From Collinsella sp. An268 (lineage in GTDB: Bacteria; Actinomycetota; Coriobacteriia; Coriobacteriales; Coriobacteriaceae): a DNA stretch of 64,000 bases. The DNA lies in contig NZ_NFJH01000004.1 in NCBI RefSeq assembly GCF_002159765.1, positions 124,001 to 188,000 on the forward strand. The letters run 5' to 3'. The notes beneath the pieces are model-generated. The model was not told where the DNA came from. It worked only from the letters and a program-made list of their open reading frames with translations, and ran no database searches. How positions within the stretch are numbered: the stretch's first letter is position 1; each line of letters opens with the position of its first letter. Below are positions 41,909 to 51,140 of this stretch, piece after piece. Both the position numbers and the translations under genes were made by a program.

Positions 41909-41948
41909 AAGGTGTGCTGAGAACACCGCCTCGTTTTCAGCACACCTT
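41909..41948. terminator. Bidirectional hairpin between yeiH and the restriction gene
   Basis: A perfect 12-base stem, AAGGTGTGCTGA with TCAGCACACCTT, and a 16-base loop that includes GTTT. The right arm overlaps the stop codon of the convergent restriction gene. It marks the left edge of the low-GC island. Confidence 0.6.
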
Positions 41949-43148
41949 ATTCTGTTTGCCTTCAACAAGGGCGCAGAAATCGGCCACGTCCATGAGCCAA
42001 TGTTGCTGGACTGCCGTAAAGGTTGCAAAGAGAGACCTGGGCACCACCAATTGCAGGTGGTCTTTCTGCATCGCCTTGGTATATGCCTCGCTCACCGCAG
42101 GTTCTAGCGTAATGAGATGCTTTTCCGCAATTCGGTCTGCCTCATCCAGAACTTGCCGCCATCTCTCTTTGATGGTTGTCTTGGCACCCAACATGGTAAG
42201 AGCCTCTACAGGAAACGCGGTGTCGTGATACGCCTCTATTGAAGGGAAAATAAAATCGGGTTTAGATTTTCCCTCCGTATAACTCTGGGCAGAGTAGCTA
42301 ATCCGCCTTGCATCGAATAGCATGCGTAGCTGATTCTCAAAAGCTGAGCCGGCGCGCGATTTGCGACGCTGGAATGTCGACATGGCAATGCGCAAAATCC
42401 CATCGATATCGTCCGTCCTTATAAACGGCTCGAGCTCACCGGCAACAAGATAGCGCTCGAAGAGACGGAAGAGCATCTCCTCCCGTTCATAGCAGGCAAG
42501 CAGAGATTCATCTGGATGACTGTGCCAGTCAAGCTCACCCAGTGTCTCAGCAGCGTAGCGAGAGAATTCCGCGCTTCGGGGAAAATGATTCCCAAACGTC
42601 TCGATAAGTCCGTCAAGGTATGCATCGGCAGCAATGGGCAGATCGATCTTTACGCCCATGCATTCAAGCAAGTCGGCAGCAAGTGAGCCAACACGGGCTT
42701 CATCAGCCTGTGAGAGTGCAAACGACGTGGTAGCACCATCAAGCCCAAAGAGCCAGCATACCTGAGATGCCATATTGCTCTCCGCACGGGTAATCGCAAC
42801 GAGGACTTCTCCGCGCCCCGTGAGGGCAACTACCATCAAATCACCCTCACGCGCCTGCTCGATAACGGCGTTGTCCTTGTAGTACAGACGGTATTCGGTT
42901 CGATTGGGTATGTTCCTGCGAGCGTCGTACCAAGTCATTAACCCGCTGTCAAAAAGCGGATCCGCGTCATCGGTTAAGTACACAAACCTCGCGGGCATAT
43001 CTTTGATGTCGTCGTCACCAAACAGGGAGCGCAAGACGGAGACCCCATTGAACTCGTGCTGGTTGCTCTTCTTTGGATCGACGTCTACGGCGGCGAGCCG
43101 CTTTGCTGCCACGCCGTCGAAGTACTTATTCAGCGTTCCGTAATCCAT
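41937..43148 (-). CDS. EcoRII-like type II restriction endonuclease
   Basis: A 403-residue endonuclease with the two-part layout of EcoRII: an N-terminal effector/DNA-binding domain (about residues 1-190) and a C-terminal PD-(D/E)xK nuclease domain (AFENQLRMLFDARRISYSAQ; the aspartate in KPDFIFPS; the catalytic lysine in LGAKTTIKERWRQVL, very like EcoRII). EcoRII cuts CCWGG and needs more than one site to be active; the same target is inferred here. The start at 43148 follows GGAGG and lies within the methyltransferase gene, giving a 23-base overlap, so the nuclease is made after the methyltransferase. Confidence 0.85.
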   Translation of the reverse strand: MDYGTLNKYFDGVAAKRLAAVDVDPKKSNQHEFNGVSVLRSLFGDDDIKDMPARFVYLTDDADPLFDSGLMTWYDARRNIPNRTEYRLYYKDNAVIEQAREGDLMVVALTGRGEVLVAITRAESNMASQVCWLFGLDGATTSFALSQADEARVGSLAADLLECMGVKIDLPIAADAYLDGLIETFGNHFPRSAEFSRYAAETLGELDWHSHPDESLLACYEREEMLFRLFERYLVAGELEPFIRTDDIDGILRIAMSTFQRRKSRAGSAFENQLRMLFDARRISYSAQSYTEGKSKPDFIFPSIEAYHDTAFPVEALTMLGAKTTIKERWRQVLDEADRIAEKHLITLEPAVSEAYTKAMQKDHLQLVVPRSLFATFTAVQQHWLMDVADFCALVEGKQNKVC

Positions 43149-44301
43149 CGTGAAGCGCCTCCAACATGAGTTTTGCAACAGATCGAACGACCGGAACCGT
43201 AACGGAATTGCCAAATTGGTGATATGCCTGCGTATCAGACACGGGAATGATGAAGCGCTCCGGGAATCCCTGGAGCCGAGCGCACTCGCGCGGTGTCAGC
43301 TTGCGCGGGTTCTCCCCCTCTCCGCGTGAGACGAGAATCTCACTGCCGTCCTTGTGATAGCGAGCTGACAACGTGCGTGTGGTGTCCCCCGGGCCGATAA
43401 CGCTATAGCCAAATCCGTTGCCGGCGGCTTCGTGCTTGGCTTTGTAAGCTTTAAGATATGACCAAAGCTTATCCGAAAGCGTATAACGGTCGTCAACCTC
43501 GGCTTCCAATATTTCCGCCGCCGTATGTTCGACATCTTGTATCTCGAGGTCATCCCAAGAGAAGTCTGTCGGCTCCCTAAACCCCACAATGTAGATGCGC
43601 TCACGATGTTGACAGGTCCATCGCTTCGAATCGAGGACCTTGTAATGGACATCATAGCCCAACTCATCCTGCAGCGTCTGCATAATGATACGGAACGTCT
43701 TCCCTTTGTCGTGACTTGTCAAGTTCTTGACGTTCTCCAGTAGAAAGGCGCGCGGTCTTTTGTCCCTAATGATGCGGGCAACTTCAAAGAAAAGCGTACC
43801 TTGGGTTTTATCTTCGAAACCCGTTGCCCTACCTAGGGAGCGCTTTTTTGAAACGCCCGCTAGAGAAAACGGCTGGCAGGGAAAGCCTGCAAGCAGGATA
43901 TCGAAATCCGGAATATCCCGTGAAGAGACGCTTCGAATATCGCCTGCGGGTATTTCACCGAAATTCATGCGATAGGTCTTCTGAGCGAACTTGTCCCACT
44001 CACACGAAAAGACGCAACGGCCACCGAGCTCCTGAAAAGGAAGGCGGATGCCCCCAATGCCCGCAAACAAATCGATAAACGTAAAAGCTGCGTCATCAGA
44101 GCAGTCCGATGCAAAGGGAGCCGTGTAGCCAAGTGACCTTATCAGCTTCAAGTCTGCAGCGGTCGGCCTGCACTCGCCAAGCTCCCAGCGACGCACTGTA
44201 CGGTCCCCATGCGGCCCCAGCCCCAGTGCAGCGGCAAACTCTTTTTGCGTAAGGCCAAGCTCGATGCGTTTCGCCTTAATCTCATTCGAATCTTCTGCCA
44301 T
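43126..44301 (-). CDS. EcoRII/SsoII-type DNA cytosine-5 methyltransferase with N-terminal HTH
   Basis: A 391-residue methyltransferase. Residues 1-60 are an XRE-like helix-turn-helix (RIELGLTQKEFAAALGL) and the rest carries the C5-methyltransferase motifs in order: FIDLFAGIGGIR (I), GFPCQPFS (IV), LLENVKNL (VI), QHRERIYIVGF (VIII), RECARLQGFP (IX) and YHQFGNSVTVPV (X). The HTH form resembles SsoII-type and EcoRII methyltransferases, which repress their own promoters. A palindrome lies 26 bases upstream of the start. Protects DNA against the endonuclease encoded next. Confidence 0.9.
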   Translation of the reverse strand: MAEDSNEIKAKRIELGLTQKEFAAALGLGPHGDRTVRRWELGECRPTAADLKLIRSLGYTAPFASDCSDDAAFTFIDLFAGIGGIRLPFQELGGRCVFSCEWDKFAQKTYRMNFGEIPAGDIRSVSSRDIPDFDILLAGFPCQPFSLAGVSKKRSLGRATGFEDKTQGTLFFEVARIIRDKRPRAFLLENVKNLTSHDKGKTFRIIMQTLQDELGYDVHYKVLDSKRWTCQHRERIYIVGFREPTDFSWDDLEIQDVEHTAAEILEAEVDDRYTLSDKLWSYLKAYKAKHEAAGNGFGYSVIGPGDTTRTLSARYHKDGSEILVSRGEGENPRKLTPRECARLQGFPERFIIPVSDTQAYHQFGNSVTVPVVRSVAKLMLEALHDGLRNAE

Positions 44302-44326
44302 GGTCCTCAGTCTCTGGAACGATTGC

Positions 44327-44341
44327 AGGACATTATGTCCT
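44327..44341. promoter_or_regulatory. Palindromic operator and -10 of the methyltransferase gene
   Basis: AGGACATTATGTCCT is a perfect palindrome about a central T, holding the half-sites GGACA and TGTCC. The minus-strand -10 candidate CATAAT (44332-44337) lies within it, so a bound protein would block transcription. GGACA half-sites are, to my recall, those bound by the regulatory HTH of SsoII-type methyltransferases. Confidence 0.55.
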
Positions 44342-44462
44342 CCTATTAACCCAGAGAGTAGTGTATCGTGCGGCGAAATAGGCGGCAAGACCGCTGCAGA
44401 AATGCCCGTACTCAAAACCATCACCCCAAGGAACGCAATCAGAAACGAGGTGGTCTTTTGGA

Positions 44463-44804
44463 TTATCGTCCGGTGGACGAACGCGAGTCGGCGACATACA
44501 CAGCAGCGCGCACCTGATGCCATGGGCTCCGCTCCGGCGCAACTTGTTGTACGACGCACTCGAACGCATCTGCATGCCCGTAATGCATCATAACGGCGAA
44601 CAGCTCGTTATGGTCTGCCGGAATATAGCCGAGACGCTTTCCCTCGAAATACAATGCGATAGCCGAGGAATCGTGCGGGTTGTCAGGCTCGGCGACCATC
44701 TGAAGGCGCATCCCGGGCTTGAGTGCGTCAAGCACAAGAGCACCCTCGCCAAACTGGAACCCTGCGATATAAAACGTTGCCAACACGCGCGACGGTTCAT
44801 ACAT
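44463..44804 (-). CDS. HIRAN domain protein
   Basis: A 113-residue protein that is essentially one HIRAN domain: FYIAGFQFGEGALVLDALKPG, then LVAEPDNPHDSSAIALYF-like residues and KRLGYIPADHNELFAVMM. HIRAN domains bind DNA 3' ends or damaged DNA in eukaryotic HLTF and occur as small stand-alone proteins in bacterial defence loci. The start at 44804 follows GAGGAGG. It lies 161 bases upstream of the methyltransferase gene on the same strand. Confidence 0.85.
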   Translation of the reverse strand: MYEPSRVLATFYIAGFQFGEGALVLDALKPGMRLQMVAEPDNPHDSSAIALYFEGKRLGYIPADHNELFAVMMHYGHADAFECVVQQVAPERSPWHQVRAAVYVADSRSSTGR

Positions 44805-44973
44805 AGCTGCCTCCTCGTAATTCCAGCGCGGCTTTTGCCGCGCCTTCCTGCCTATAAACAGCATATGGCGTCGTGCGGACAAAGAATGTGCACCCAGAAT
44901 ATGTCGTTTGGCCATTGTTCACTTGATCAGGAAACACAGCCGTGATCTAATGAAAGAGTCGTTGGGAGCGTAT

Positions 44974-46017
44974 ATGACTATTCAGTTTTTTCAAGGCCCC
45001 ACTCTCAGTCTAGAGAGAGCAAAGCGTATCGCCCCAACTGACTACTCTAAGGCCTACGACTGGTTCATGAAGCATGCCGGCGAGATAGGACCACGCCCCT
45101 ATGGGACTAACGCCCCAAAAGATGTGGGCATCACCTTGTGCGCTCAACGCGGCATACACAAACCGAAAGGTCAATTTCGCTATGCTCTATCGATAACCTC
45201 AACTGCCAATCCGTTCTACAGCACCGATAGGATCCATCGGCTCGATGGCGACACTTGGGTGGTTTCCTATAGTGAACAGCGTCAAAACGATGGAAGCAGC
45301 GACACCAATACGGTATATAACGAAGCACTGCACAATTGCCTGCACGACGGGCTTCCCGTCGGGATCTTCATCAAGCAGAACTATGGGTCATTCCTCTGCC
45401 TTGGACTGGCATTCGTTGAACATTACGACAACGAGGCGAGAGCGTTTCTGCTACATGGTCCCGTAACCACCGAAACCGGCAAAGCACTATCGCCCATCGT
45501 TTCCGAATCGATCAATAGACCCACAATCGAACATGTTCTGATTGCGTATAACGGAAGCGTCAACGGAGTACTTGCCGATGAGATAGATCGAGCTCTCACT
45601 ACCGGCCAGCTTAACGATGACAAGGGCGATCTCATACCGCTCGTTCGCGCCGCTCGCCAACGCCAGTATCGCGATGCACTCTTTGAAACATATCAAAGCC
45701 GCTGCGCAATCACAGGATGCTGCGAGGGCAATGCGCTGCAGGCGGGACGCATCGTATCCTATTTGGGGGCAGCCAGTAACCGCCCCTCAAACGGTCTCTG
45801 CCTGCGCGCTGATATTCGACAGCTCTTTGACCGCCACCTTCTTTCAATCAATCCCGAGCACCTAACCGTACGGGTCTCTTTGCCTCTCATGCAAAGCGAA
45901 TATCGAAACCTCAACGGAAGGTCGCTGCTCCTTCCCGCCGACAAAAAGAAGCTACCCTCATACTCTAGACTCGCTGCGCACTACGCTGAGTTCCTAGAAC
46001 GAGACGGCACCCCATAA
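44974..46017 (+). CDS. SRA-like / degenerate HNH protein
   Basis: A 347-residue protein. The N-terminal 190 residues (DVGITLCAQRGIHKPKGQFRY; a DGDTWVVSYSEQ strand; GLPVGIFIKQN) resemble the SRA-like domains that read modified cytosine in McrA-type enzymes. The C-terminal part follows the HNH_2 pattern: RDALFETYQSRCAITGC, then AGRIVSYLG and NGLCLRADIRQLFD. In homologues these last two read AAHI and D-x-H-x-LFD; both histidines are arginine here (CGC and CGA codons), so nuclease activity is doubtful. The start at 44974 follows GGGAG. It is divergent from the HIRAN gene. The SRA call is moderate. Confidence 0.68.
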   Translation: MTIQFFQGPTLSLERAKRIAPTDYSKAYDWFMKHAGEIGPRPYGTNAPKDVGITLCAQRGIHKPKGQFRYALSITSTANPFYSTDRIHRLDGDTWVVSYSEQRQNDGSSDTNTVYNEALHNCLHDGLPVGIFIKQNYGSFLCLGLAFVEHYDNEARAFLLHGPVTTETGKALSPIVSESINRPTIEHVLIAYNGSVNGVLADEIDRALTTGQLNDDKGDLIPLVRAARQRQYRDALFETYQSRCAITGCCEGNALQAGRIVSYLGAASNRPSNGLCLRADIRQLFDRHLLSINPEHLTVRVSLPLMQSEYRNLNGRSLLLPADKKKLPSYSRLAAHYAEFLERDGTP

Positions 46018-46067: not shown

Positions 46068-46282
46068 CTACAGTCGCCTAGCAATTGCCATGCCCACGCG
46101 ATGGGGAATGCCGACGATCAGCGCGTTGCCCATACAAAATGCTCGGTTGATATCTGACATCCCGGTATCCGTCCAGCCTTTCGGGAACCCCTGCAGCTGG
46201 TCGAGCTCGTCGGGAACCAGCCGGCGATACCTGCCGTCGGCAGTCCGCACGATATGCTTGCTCCGAGAAGCAGACCCCCCCC
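46068..46282 (-). other. Out-of-frame 3' end of the methyltransferase fusion (motifs IX and X)
   Basis: In the frame that starts just after the C9 tract the translation runs SASRSKHIVRTADGRYRR, then LVPDELDQLQGFPKGW (motif IX) and CMGNALIVGIPHRVGMAIA (motif X), ending at a stop at 46068. These are essential parts of a cytosine-5 methyltransferase and are lost from the main frame, which ends at 46118 after about 54 unrelated residues. Confidence 0.8.
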
Positions 46283-48733
46283 CTCACTTGTAAGGATTGT
46301 TCTTGCCGGCGCGTCTACGGGGTCGGGAAAAGCCATAGCACCTTCAGAATAGGTATAGGTGAAACCCGTGCTCCTGTTAACGCGCGGCTCATTTTTCCCG
46401 CCCTTGAGGTAACGCCATTTTTCGAGCTTCTCGTCCTCCACGTAGAAAGATTCCGGAACCTCCTCATCGGGAACGAGAACATCTCCCAGCACGTGATGCG
46501 CACCGACGTAACGTGGCAGAACTTCAGCCGTCAAAACCCGACAATCTTGCATCACACCGGCGCGCATGAAGGGGGATTTCTTTAGGCCGAGGCCAAAGTG
46601 TTCGGAGTTCTCGTAAGGATCTGCAAACAACGAGAACGACGAGGCGTCCTCCGTCACCTCAGCGGGGAACGCATCGGCAAAGATACCGTCCTCGAGACGC
46701 GTTTCAAGATCCCACTGCCCTTCAGTCTTCTCAGCAAAAATGTATACCCGTCGCCTTTTCTGAGGAAAACCGTAATCCGCACCGTTGATAACACGCCACT
46801 CGACCGCGTAGCCAAGCGCGGCCAGACAGGAAAGAATAATGGCGAAGTCGCGGCCGCGTTGGCTTGCCGGGCTCTTAAGTAACCGGTCCACATTCTCCAG
46901 TAGTACGTATTTGGGACAGTTCTTAAGCCGGAGAAACCGGTAAATATCCCACCAGAGCACGCCCTTCTTGCCCTCGATGCCATTTGCCTGGGCTAGCGGC
47001 TTTGCAACCGAGTAATCTTGGCACGGAAAGCCTCCGACCACCATATCAACGTCTGGAATGTCAATCTTTCCCGCCTCGTACTCATCCAGCACGCGGTGAA
47101 TGTCTTCATTAACCACTGAACCGTATCCGAAGCGCGTCTCGTAGCAGCGGGCGGCAAATTGCTTAGCAGGAGAACCCTGTGGCTCCCATTGATTAGCCCA
47201 AACCGTCACGAAAGGCCCCGCTGCCGGTAGAGAGAACTCGGGATGGTCCGCTCGGTTGTATCCCTCAAGACCCAAACGAAAACCACCCACACCGGCGAAC
47301 AGTTCTGCTACTCGAATTACGTTTCCCGACACGCTGCTCCGATCAATCTTTTCCTCAATCGCCCTCGACGTCGAGGCCCAAAGTTCCCGCTTTACTCTAT
47401 CGATCTCCTGACCGATGTAGCGCGCATTGAGCCAAAAACACTTTTTTGTTTCGAAGGATCCATACGGCGTAGGGAGGACATCGTTTTTGTTCCTTCCATG
47501 CGGTCTCACATGGCAGCAGCGATTCTCCGTCGATCTGACAGACCGATCGGCCCGCCCCGCTCGTACACGGCGCCGCATCTCCTCATAGCACCGCTTCGCC
47601 TCTAGAAGATCCTTGTCGGGCATTTGCCAAAACAGCACTTCAGCCAACTGATAGCGTCCGCGATGTTCGAACGACTCCCTAAATATGACAAACAGATACT
47701 TCTGGTGTAGATAGTCGTAGAAATCGCTCTCTTCAAATTCCTGTTGTGCTAACTCCATATAGCTAAAGGTGGGAAATGAGATGGACTCCTTCGGTATGCC
47801 GTCGTATTTCAACCGGATGGTCTTGGGTTTTATCCCTGCCTTTTCAAACTCGGCAATTTTGGATTTTTCATCAACGCCCAGGAGCGAACGAGTGATAAGG
47901 GCGCACAGGTTCTTCGGCTTCCTACCGTGAGCCACATGATATCCACAGCAGGATGCAAGCTCCTCCTCGGTAAGTCCGATATACGGTTCGAAGCGATGCC
48001 GCACAAGTTCCAACAAATCAAGTTGCGCCTCGCCACGCTTGCGCTGTATTCGCTGCGCATCGAGTAAATGATTGAACGTCGCTGTCATGTACGATGATTT
48101 GAGCGCCCACGCTCGTGGTTTTGCCGGAATGGTTGAATACGGCTGCGGTGTTCGCGCTTTTGAGGATGACGCCTTAGTTGCAGCCTCTAGATAGAGCGTG
48201 TCCGAACCGGAAAGCTCGTGCGCATGACCTGCGCGAATCTTACCAACAACGGTATCCCAATCCTTCTTGAACGTTGGAACGTCCTCTGGCGGAATATGCC
48301 AGAGCTCAACCAATTTGACCAGATAATCAACCGGATTGAGGTCCTTGTCGTACTGATAGGCAATAAGCAGAATCTTATGGAGCTTTTTGAGCAGAGAGCT
48401 GCTCTCCCACGTTTCATCAACCACCTTCATGTAGTTGATCATGCTGATAACGAGGCGCTCCTTGGCTGAATATCCACCGTTCTTCCGACGCTTAAGCGGC
48501 GTCGTCTTGAGCTCGGTCCCCACCTCTTCAAAATCCGGAGCGCTTTTTGAGTTGGGGGCATAATGGAAGAAGTACTGCTCGACCGCATTGCCGAAGGCGC
48601 CGCGCCGCACGTGAGGATCCGTCAATGCGTCGATGTGGCACGCATTACGCAGAGTCGTACCTTCCAGCTGCTTGGCGTACGCCGCAATTGACGCCAAAGA
48701 CGAGGCATCGTAATCACGTTGTTGAGCCGGCAT
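46118..48733 (-). CDS. Sau3AI-like endonuclease fused to DNA cytosine-5 methyltransferase (C-terminus frameshifted)
   Basis: An 871-residue single-chain restriction-modification protein. Residues 1-470 match Sau3AI: a MutH-like nuclease with APDFEEVGTELKTT (D...ExK) and the Sau3AI-type C-terminal half ending CFWLNARYIGQEI. Residues 480-817 are a C5 methyltransferase: FAGVGGFRLGL (I), GGFPCQDYS (IV), LLENVDRLL (VI), FPQKRRRVYIF (VIII). At residue 817 a G9 run shifts the frame, so motifs IX and X are lost. G10 or G7 would give about 888 or 887 residues ending at 46068. GATC is the inferred target. The start at 48733 follows GGGGAGGG. Confidence 0.85.
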   Translation of the reverse strand: MPAQQRDYDASSLASIAAYAKQLEGTTLRNACHIDALTDPHVRRGAFGNAVEQYFFHYAPNSKSAPDFEEVGTELKTTPLKRRKNGGYSAKERLVISMINYMKVVDETWESSSLLKKLHKILLIAYQYDKDLNPVDYLVKLVELWHIPPEDVPTFKKDWDTVVGKIRAGHAHELSGSDTLYLEAATKASSSKARTPQPYSTIPAKPRAWALKSSYMTATFNHLLDAQRIQRKRGEAQLDLLELVRHRFEPYIGLTEEELASCCGYHVAHGRKPKNLCALITRSLLGVDEKSKIAEFEKAGIKPKTIRLKYDGIPKESISFPTFSYMELAQQEFEESDFYDYLHQKYLFVIFRESFEHRGRYQLAEVLFWQMPDKDLLEAKRCYEEMRRRVRAGRADRSVRSTENRCCHVRPHGRNKNDVLPTPYGSFETKKCFWLNARYIGQEIDRVKRELWASTSRAIEEKIDRSSVSGNVIRVAELFAGVGGFRLGLEGYNRADHPEFSLPAAGPFVTVWANQWEPQGSPAKQFAARCYETRFGYGSVVNEDIHRVLDEYEAGKIDIPDVDMVVGGFPCQDYSVAKPLAQANGIEGKKGVLWWDIYRFLRLKNCPKYVLLENVDRLLKSPASQRGRDFAIILSCLAALGYAVEWRVINGADYGFPQKRRRVYIFAEKTEGQWDLETRLEDGIFADAFPAEVTEDASSFSLFADPYENSEHFGLGLKKSPFMRAGVMQDCRVLTAEVLPRYVGAHHVLGDVLVPDEEVPESFYVEDEKLEKWRYLKGGKNEPRVNRSTGFTYTYSEGAMAFPDPVDAPARTILTSEGGGLLLGASISCGLPTAGIAGWFPTSSTSCRGSRKAGRIPGCQISTEHFVWATR
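46275..46283. repeat. C9/G9 homopolymer, candidate phase-variation tract
   Basis: Nine consecutive C on the plus strand (G on the coding strand) within the methyltransferase part of the fusion gene. The reading frame is correct before it and one base out after it. Confidence 0.85.
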
Positions 48734-48760
48734 CGCGCCCTCCCCAAAGAACATGAGTTC

Positions 48761-50033: not shown

Positions 50034-50987
50034 TTAGCCGCGGAACCCACCGCGATCGCCGAAGCCGCCGCGGCCGCCGCGATCGTTGCCACGGCCACCG
50101 AAACCGCCGCGCGAACCGCCACGGTCGCCGAAGCCACCACGGCCACCGCGATCGCCGCCGCGACCGCCGAAGCCGCCGCGGTCGCCACCACGGCCGCCGC
50201 CGAAGCCGCCGCGGCCGCCGCGATCGCCGCTACGGCCACCGCCGAAGCCGCCGCGGCCGCCACGGTCGCCGCCGCGCCCGCCGCGGTCACCGAAGCCGCC
50301 ACGTCCGCCGCGGTCGCCACCGCGGCCGCCGCGGTCGCCGAAGCCGCCGCGCGGACCGCGATCCTCATCGAGGCCCATGCCCACGAGCGGGTCGATTACC
50401 TTATCGAGCATCTCGAGGAGCGCGATGGCGTCCTCAGAGGAGAGCGTGGGGATGTACTTCTTGCGCTTCTCGCCCTGCGCCTTGGCAAGCTCCTCGGCGT
50501 CCTCGCTCGCAAAGACCACCACGGCGCGCATATCGTTGTCCTCGGGCTCGATGCGGCCCACGATGTCGTGCTTCTCAGCCTCGGCGAGAATGCCGTTGAG
50601 CTCGCGCAGGCGCATGCCCATGAGGTCGGCCATCTCCTTCTGCTCCATACGGGGCTTGAGCTCCAGAAGCTTGAGGGCTCGCATGAGGTTGTCGTTGCGC
50701 TCGCGATCGACCTCGGCCTCCTGCTCGAGCGCGCTGCGACGGTTGCGCATCAGGCGCGCAGCGCGGTTGAGCTTATCGAGGAGCTGGCCGTCCAGGTCCT
50801 CGGGAACGTCCTTCTTATCCGCATCCTCGGCGGCATCATCGGCCTCGGCGTCATCCGCCTCGGCAACCACGGTCTCGGCAGCGACCTCAGCCGGGGCAGC
50901 CTCAACCTCGGTGGCCTCAACCTCGGCAGCCGGCGTCTCGATCGCTTCGTCTACGGTCTCGTTCATCGTCTCGTTCATCTCGTCCAT
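50034..50987 (-). CDS. Winged-helix protein with C-terminal RGG-repeat tail
   Basis: A 317-residue protein in three parts: an acidic N-terminus (residues 1-70, rich in Glu, Ala and Val); a helical and MarR-like winged-helix section (about 75-170, with MRALKLLELKPRMEQKEMADLM); and, after a short helix, about 110 residues made almost only of Arg, Gly, Asp and Phe in RGG/FGDRGG units. RGG tails bind RNA and drive condensate formation in other proteins. The domain order suggests a nucleic-acid-binding regulator; the exact role is unknown. The start at 50987 follows GGAAGG. Confidence 0.78.
   Translation of the reverse strand: MDEMNETMNETVDEAIETPAAEVEATEVEAAPAEVAAETVVAEADDAEADDAAEDADKKDVPEDLDGQLLDKLNRAARLMRNRRSALEQEAEVDRERNDNLMRALKLLELKPRMEQKEMADLMGMRLRELNGILAEAEKHDIVGRIEPEDNDMRAVVVFASEDAEELAKAQGEKRKKYIPTLSSEDAIALLEMLDKVIDPLVGMGLDEDRGPRGGFGDRGGRGGDRGGRGGFGDRGGRGGDRGGRGGFGGGRSGDRGGRGGFGGGRGGDRGGFGGRGGDRGGRGGFGDRGGSRGGFGGRGNDRGGRGGFGDRGGFRG
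50037..50370. repeat. RGG-coding repeat array
   Basis: Degenerate short direct repeats (units of 9 to 27 bases encoding FGDRGG, RGGDRGG and FGGGRGG) make up the 3' third of the gene. On the opposite strand they create long open frames of Ala and Pro that are not genes. Confidence 0.8.
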
Positions 50988-51140
50988 ACAGACCTTCCAC
51001 TTTCTGCGCCGCCTCGGCGCGTCATCTGGGCGCTTCCGCGCCATCGGGGCCTTCCGGCCTTCTCAAACAAGCCGCCTTCCGGCGGCGACCATTCAGTTTA
51101 GGGGCTTTAGCCGCGCCGGACCGCTAGAACTTCGGCGCGC

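What the first reader, a model, noticed from the sequence alone, without database searches (positions are those of the whole stretch)
46068..48733. Single-chain Sau3AI-methyltransferase fusion with a poly-G frameshift
Endonuclease and methyltransferase are fused in one protein. A G9 run puts motifs IX and X out of frame, although they are intact in another frame; G10 or G7 would restore them. Homopolymer slippage would switch the enzyme between a complete and a truncated form. The state read here would leave the nuclease domain without a full methyltransferase, which should be dangerous unless the fusion also loses cutting activity or another methyltransferase protects GATC.
Basis: partly seen in the sequence, partly recalled or inferred. 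Interest (0 to 1): 0.7.

Follow-up and report, generated by a model that had tools for sequence, protein, structure and literature searches.

The report
Slippage-switched single-chain Sau3AI restriction-modification enzyme
Gut bacteria of the Collinsella/Enorma family carry a DNA-cutting enzyme fused to the DNA-marking enzyme that should protect the cell from it, and a run of G's that changes length from species to species repeatedly puts the last, essential part of the protective half in or out of frame, which looks like an on/off switch that I did not find described for this enzyme family.

Summary
Window 46068-48754(-) encodes a complete Sau3AI-type endonuclease fused to an M.Sau3AI-type m5C methyltransferase. 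A G9 run (46275-46283) shifts the frame about 68 codons before the true end, dropping motifs IX and X. Fourteen orthologous fusions were found, all in Coriobacteriaceae (Collinsella/Enorma), forming one clade. All 14 keep a poly-G run at this site (G7, G8, nine G9, two G10, G13): 4 in frame, 10 out, in both wrong registers, needing at least 7 register changes on the tree. Among the 10 out-of-frame genomes the post-tract codons are still under purifying selection in the in-frame register (pN/pS 0.18, against 0.17 in in-frame genomes). 51 of 52 un-fused relatives lack the run, and all 52 are in frame. The family lacks MutS, so runs should slip freely. Best reading: a hypermutable ON/OFF contingency locus. 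Whether switching happens within one strain, and why the OFF form (predicted intact nuclease, no methyltransferase, no second GATC m5C methyltransferase of this family seen) is not lethal, remain unshown. This is a new variant of a known kind (phase-variable R-M).

The parts
46068..48754 (-). single-chain Sau3AI-type REase / m5C MTase gene, extent in the ON register (stop 46068-46070); a second candidate start lies at 48733
   Evidence: orthologue G003 is in frame over this whole length
46118..48754 (-). the ORF as assembled (G9, OFF register), 878 aa, with a tail of about 50 unconserved residues
47402..48691 (-). Sau3AI endonuclease domain (residues 22-451: MutH-like catalytic part plus C-terminal effector part)
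   Evidence: NF040973 410 bits; PF02976 in two stretches; 4pxg matched by sequence and by Foldseek on the ON orthologue model
48506..48538 (-). catalytic D74 / E81 / K83 segment (PDFEEVGTELK)
   Evidence: D, E and K invariant in all 14 fusions, ON and OFF
47321..47428 (-). linker, a long predicted helix joining REase to MTase
   Evidence: least constrained stretch, pN/pS 0.5-0.7
46277..47320 (-). m5C methyltransferase domain before the tract: motif I 47264-47305, IV with PCQ 47006-47035, VI 46877-46903, VIII 46733-46765, then the target recognition region
46275..46283 (-). poly-G tract (G9) at the codons after TSE; the slippage site
46071..46268 (-). C-terminal 66 codons in the ON register with motif IX (46182-46226) and motif X (46083-46130), out of frame here
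   Evidence: pN/pS 0.18 among OFF genomes

Best explanation
It is a contingency (phase-variable) locus. A GATC-type Type II restriction-modification system, made as one polypeptide with Sau3AI nuclease first and m5C methyltransferase second, carries a hypermutable G7-G13 run just before methyltransferase motifs IX and X. Replication slippage in a lineage without MutS/MutL changes the run by single G's. One length in three restores the C-terminus, giving a full enzyme that methylates GATC (m5C) and restricts unmethylated DNA (ON). The other two give a truncated, methyltransferase-dead protein (OFF). Shown: the fusion; the conserved tract; all three registers among relatives; repeated register changes on the tree; purifying selection on the ON register in genomes assembled OFF; absence of MutS/MutL. 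Inferred from family membership: GATC specificity and m5C activity. Inferred from the viability of 10 OFF genomes in which no second methyltransferase of this family was seen: the nuclease must also be silent in OFF cells, most likely because the truncated chain is unstable or its nuclease needs a complete methyltransferase partner. Not shown: switching within a strain.
For: Fusion. Tract at the same site in 14 of 14 orthologues, lengths 7, 8, 9 (nine), 10 (two), 13; 4 ON, 4 in one wrong register, 6 in the other. Sister species G003 (G10, ON) and G006 (G9, OFF) are about 98% identical before the tract; after it they show 13 synonymous and 0 non-synonymous differences. Post-tract ON-register pN/pS 0.184 in OFF genomes, 0.173 in ON genomes; the other two frames are above 1.5. 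REase and pre-tract MTase are equally constrained in OFF and ON genomes (0.257/0.243 and 0.230/0.222). Tree: one origin of fusion plus tract (SH-aLRT 99), at least 7 register changes and at least 4 ON/OFF changes over 14 tips. 51 of 52 un-fused relatives lack the run and all 52 are in frame. No MutS, MutL or NucS match in this genome, and none of 65 family genomes reaches the MutS cut-off. Lack of MutS/L is the proposed reason for frequent frameshifts in homopolymer runs of mycobacteria (PMC10159617). Fused R-M phase variation by poly-G is established in Campylobacter jejuni cj0031 (PMC4889913).
Against: One genome per species was available, so all length variation seen is between species. Homopolymer lengths are consensus calls; some records may come from error-prone methods, and one (G042, G13) comes from a contig named with coverage 4.9. 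The ON and OFF models together suggest the nuclease domain still folds in OFF (most blocks pLDDT 85-95) and its catalytic residues are conserved, so nuclease silence in OFF is an inference from viability only. Transcriptional slippage on G9 could supply some full-length protein in OFF genomes and would explain the same conservation. No methylation, cleavage or expression data.
Confidence: 0.78

Rival explanations
1. Transcriptional (or ribosomal) slippage on the G run makes a mixture of full-length and truncated protein from any tract length, so the tract sets a dose or an R:M balance rather than a heritable on/off state.
For: Explains why OFF genomes stay alive and why the post-tract codons stay conserved in all registers.
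Against: A fixed programmed frameshift would keep one register, but all three registers occur. I know of no established poly-G slippage of this kind in these bacteria. The tract length varies between species, as expected for a mutable DNA tract, though this rival does not forbid that.
Confidence: 0.2
2. Assembly or sequencing error: the true tract is in frame in all strains.
For: Homopolymers of 9-10 are error-prone; read data were not available.
Against: Ten of 14 assemblies, from many different projects, are OFF, including a complete chromosome (C. stercoris FDAARGOS_1572). The length clusters at 9 whichever length is in frame for that species. A true long G run would still be an unusual, conserved and mutable feature.
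Confidence: 0.08
3. Plain decay: out-of-frame copies are dying pseudogenes.
For: 10 of 14 copies are out of frame.
Against: No other disruption upstream of the tract in these copies; nuclease, methyltransferase and post-tract codons are as constrained in OFF as in ON genomes.
Confidence: 0.04
4. The OFF state is a deliberate nuclease-only form, for example attack on unmethylated invaders or self-killing under stress, rather than silence.
For: Nuclease active-site residues conserved; nuclease fold predicted intact without the methyltransferase C-terminus.
Against: GATC is frequent (231 sites in the 64-kb window) and no second GATC m5C methyltransferase was seen, so an active nuclease would cut the host; the OFF tails are not conserved.
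Confidence: 0.05

Closest known systems
Sau3AI R-M system (R.Sau3AI plus M.Sau3AI; NF040973)
   Same: Both halves match: REase 410 bits, fold match to 4pxg at 28% identity, MutH-like D/E/K; the MTase resembles the m5C MTases that stand next to Sau3AI-type genes in many phyla.
   Different: The relatives examined are two genes, in R-M, M-R or divergent order; here one chain, R first, with a poly-G run before motif IX.
Campylobacter jejuni Cj0031 (Type IIG, poly-G phase variable; PMC4889913)
   Same: Single-chain R-M switched by a poly-G run inside the gene; not all homologues carry the run.
   Different: Type IIG enzymes methylate one strand and cut 14-21 bp away. Here the nuclease is a self-contained Sau3AI and the methyltransferase is m5C, so OFF does not obviously disarm the nuclease.
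Helicobacter pylori phase-variable R-M genes (e.g. HP1471 G13, HP1522 G10, HP0464 C9; PMC4209511)
   Same: G/C homopolymer runs of similar length inside R-M genes, ON or OFF by strain.
   Different: Other R-M types; none listed is a Sau3AI-methyltransferase fusion.
Metamycoplasma hominis DCM8/DAM3 (PMC10305163)
   Same: Fusion protein of R-M origin with repeat-length variation within one strain.
   Different: Two methyltransferases, TA repeat, no nuclease in the chain.

Membership tests
Sau3AI family type II restriction endonuclease (NF040973) | Whole-protein score above curated cut-off | tested here: met
   410 bits against 300
Sau3AI family type II restriction endonuclease (NF040973) | MutH-like catalytic D...E.K and two-part fold | tested here: met
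   D74, E81, K83, invariant in 14; 4pxg and 7xm0/2reu fold matches for the ON orthologue
Sau3AI family type II restriction endonuclease (NF040973) | Cuts GATC, blocked by GATm5C | not testable with these tools
   Needs biochemistry; sensitivity of Sau3AI to GATm5C is in PMC10305163
m5C DNA methyltransferase (PF00145) | Motifs I, IV, VI, VIII in frame | tested here: met
m5C DNA methyltransferase (PF00145) | Motifs IX and X in frame | tested here: not met
   Out of frame in this assembly; in frame in 4 of 14 orthologues
Type IIG R-M enzyme | Single chain, cleavage at a distance, one strand methylated | tested here: inconclusive
   Single chain is met, but both domains belong to classes that act within a palindrome (Sau3AI, m5C MTase); not filed as IIG
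Phase-variable (contingency) locus | Repeat tract in the coding frame whose length decides full-length translation | tested here: met
Phase-variable (contingency) locus | Tract length varies among relatives while the gene stays under selection | tested here: met
   (between species)
Phase-variable (contingency) locus | Reversible switching within a strain or culture | not testable with these tools
   One genome per species; no reads
Phasevarion | Methylation state alters expression of a set of genes | not testable with these tools
   No methylome or transcriptome

The most novel reading that the evidence does not exclude
Fusing the nuclease to its methyltransferase is what made phase variation of a Sau3AI-type system survivable: the nuclease works only as part of a chain with a complete methyltransferase C-terminus, so one slippage event disarms or re-arms both activities together. 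Fusion and a slippage-prone tract arose on the same branch, and among 66 systems compared they part company only once (an un-fused G8, in frame).
Probability: 0.35. Interest if true: 0.75.

Novelty: new variant of a known kind. Interest (0 to 1): 0.62.

Why it matters
Restriction systems are usually thought unsafe to lose from the methyltransferase side first, because the nuclease then cuts the host. Here that side is the one placed on a mutable tract, and the arrangement has been kept across a family of gut commensals. Working out why OFF cells survive would test how nuclease and methyltransferase are coupled in single-chain enzymes. It would also add common gut actinobacteria without MutS to the bacteria whose phage defence and DNA methylation may flicker between states, which affects transformability, phage sensitivity and methylome comparisons.

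Tried and rejected
Chance run: rejected by 14 of 14 against 1 of 52. Fixed programmed frameshift: rejected, three registers occur. Decay: rejected on pN/pS. A protecting second methyltransferase: the only other PF00145 gene in this genome is the EcoRII/Dcm-like neighbour, there is no Dam-type gene, one N6/N4-type gene of unknown specificity exists on another contig, and no second M.Sau3AI-like match was listed in OFF genomes. Viral contigs gave no relative. The phage and plasmid records opened held only two-gene relatives near 40% identity. The convergent HNH gene was considered as a partner, but it was found beside only 5 of the 14 fusions (some contigs end close by). Searches failed on coordinates or script error and were repeated. 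The fusM marker was cut in the wrong frame and was not used. Paper searches for a Collinsella phase-variable R-M found nothing relevant.

Full report
OBSERVATION. The minus-strand ORF 46118-48754 (878 aa) joins a complete Sau3AI-type endonuclease (residues 22-451; NF040973, 410 bits against a cut-off of 300) to an m5C methyltransferase (from residue 479; TIGR00675, PF00145, PADLOC MTase_II). A G9 run (C9 on the + strand, 46275-46283) lies after the codons for T-S-E. In the frame as assembled the protein runs into an unrelated tail.

ORTHOLOGUES. Every one of the 14 has a G run at this site. Lengths are 7, 8, 9 (nine genomes), 10 (two) and 13. Four are in frame (G003 = Collinsella sp. An307, G032 = C. 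tanakaei An791, G040 = an uncultured Coriobacteriaceae bacterium, G025 = C. bouchesdurhonensis) and ten are out of frame, four in one wrong register and six in the other. The in-frame length differs between species (7/10 for most, 9/6 for those with an extra base after the run), yet 9 is the commonest length in both groups, as expected if the tract drifts around a mutational equilibrium and not around a selected frame.

SELECTION. In the 10 out-of-frame genomes the 64 codons after the run, read in the ON register, have pN/pS 0.184; in the 4 in-frame genomes 0.173; in the other two frames the ratio is above 1.5. Synonymous sites are near saturation, so these are ratios of raw proportions and not formal omega estimates, but the contrast between frames does not depend on that. 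The endonuclease domain (0.257 OFF, 0.243 ON) and the pre-tract methyltransferase (0.230, 0.222) are likewise equally constrained. Sister species G003 (G10, ON) and G006 (G9, OFF) differ by 13 synonymous and no non-synonymous changes after the run. Lineages now OFF have therefore been ON for much of their history, or make some ON product while OFF.

PHYLOGENY AND CONTROLS. On a tree of the pre-tract methyltransferase region the 14 fused genes are one side of a branch (SH-aLRT 99), with 34 un-fused relatives outside; the register needs at least 7 changes and ON/OFF at least 4 over 14 tips. Un-fused relatives in the same order are mostly tandem R-then-M genes with stop codons between them, so the fusion most simply arose by reading through. 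Of 52 un-fused relatives only one has a G run of 7 or more at the site (G8, in frame), and all 52 are in frame. The Fisher p-values printed there (1e-11 or lower) ignore shared ancestry: fusion and tract arose once together, so the association is one event, but its retention in 14 species that differ by up to a third of their residues is not.

WHY THE RUN SHOULD SLIP. This genome (99.96% complete) has no match to MutS_V, MutL_C or NucS_C, while each of these families was found in 7 to 11 of 14 control genomes. None of the 65 family genomes reaches the MutS cut-off. Absence of MutS/L is the proposed explanation for frequent frameshifts in homopolymer runs of mycobacteria (PMC10159617), and NucS does not repair small indels (PMC11551767). 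The application to Collinsella is inference.

MECHANISM AND THE PARADOX. An AlphaFold2 model of the in-frame An307 orthologue (mean pLDDT 85, pTM 0.71) matches Sau3AI (4pxg) and HhaI-type methyltransferases. The model of this window's own OFF protein (mean 77.7) has a disordered tail (residues 822-878, pLDDT under 50) and lower confidence around motif I (blocks near 60 against near 90), while the nuclease domain is little changed (most blocks 85-95). The two jobs used different first sequences and slightly different alignments, so this is an indication only. It agrees with the known packing of motif X beside motif I (general knowledge of m5C methyltransferases). OFF should thus be methyltransferase-dead with a foldable nuclease. 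GATC is common (231 in 64 kb), no second methyltransferase of this family was listed in the OFF genomes, and in this genome the only other m5C gene is an EcoRII/Dcm-type neighbour. A nuclease active on GATC should therefore be lethal. Since ten such genomes exist, either the OFF chain is degraded or inactive, or expression slippage supplies some full-length enzyme. I favour silence of both activities in OFF, but this step is inferred from viability and not shown.

WHAT IT IS LIKE AND WHETHER IT IS NEW. It works like the poly-G-switched single-chain R-M enzyme Cj0031 of Campylobacter jejuni (PMC4889913) and the G/C-run R-M genes of H. pylori (PMC4209511). By family it is a Sau3AI-type endonuclease joined to an m5C methyltransferase, not a Type IIG enzyme. 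No paper found in the searchable library describes a phase-variable Sau3AI fusion or any phase-variable R-M in Collinsella; most subscription literature and REBASE could not be searched. I rate it a new variant of a known kind.

LIMITS. One genome per species, no reads, no methylome, no expression. Variation is between species. GATC specificity is taken from the family.

Noticed in passing
41937-44559: A second R-M system next door: EcoRII-C-type endonuclease (PF09019) and Dcm-like m5C methyltransferase with an N-terminal helix-turn-helix. The syntenic loci of G003 and G006 lack it between the HIRAN gene and the YeiH-like gene.
   Followed up: partly
44908-46017: HNH endonuclease ORF convergent with the fusion. 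Copies 63% identical stand in the same place in G003 and G006; more distant copies (41-42%) flank the fusions of G040 and G051; none was seen beside the other nine, some of whose contigs end close by.
   Followed up: partly
44463-44915: Small HIRAN-domain protein; HIRAN copies lie within about 10 kb of the fusion in several relatives (G025, G040, G050, G057, G058, G059) as well as in G003 and G006.
   Followed up: no
G000 outside the window (L110-L139): The genome holds about 20 further G runs of 8 or more, some with a shared context (TGTCCATGGGGGGGGGTTA in L112 and L139), and contigs C11 and C20 begin inside G runs. There may be more contingency loci.
   Followed up: partly
L025 / G051: C. 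tanakaei YIT 12063 carries roughly 100 extra bases in the linker between nuclease and methyltransferase, still open.
   Followed up: no
L068 / L147 (G115): An un-fused relative outside the order has a G8 run at the same site, in frame; a possible independent beginning of such a tract.
   Followed up: no
50040-50380: Glycine/arginine-rich low-complexity C-terminus (GGRGGDRGG repeats) of the ORF at 50034-51044(-).
   Followed up: no
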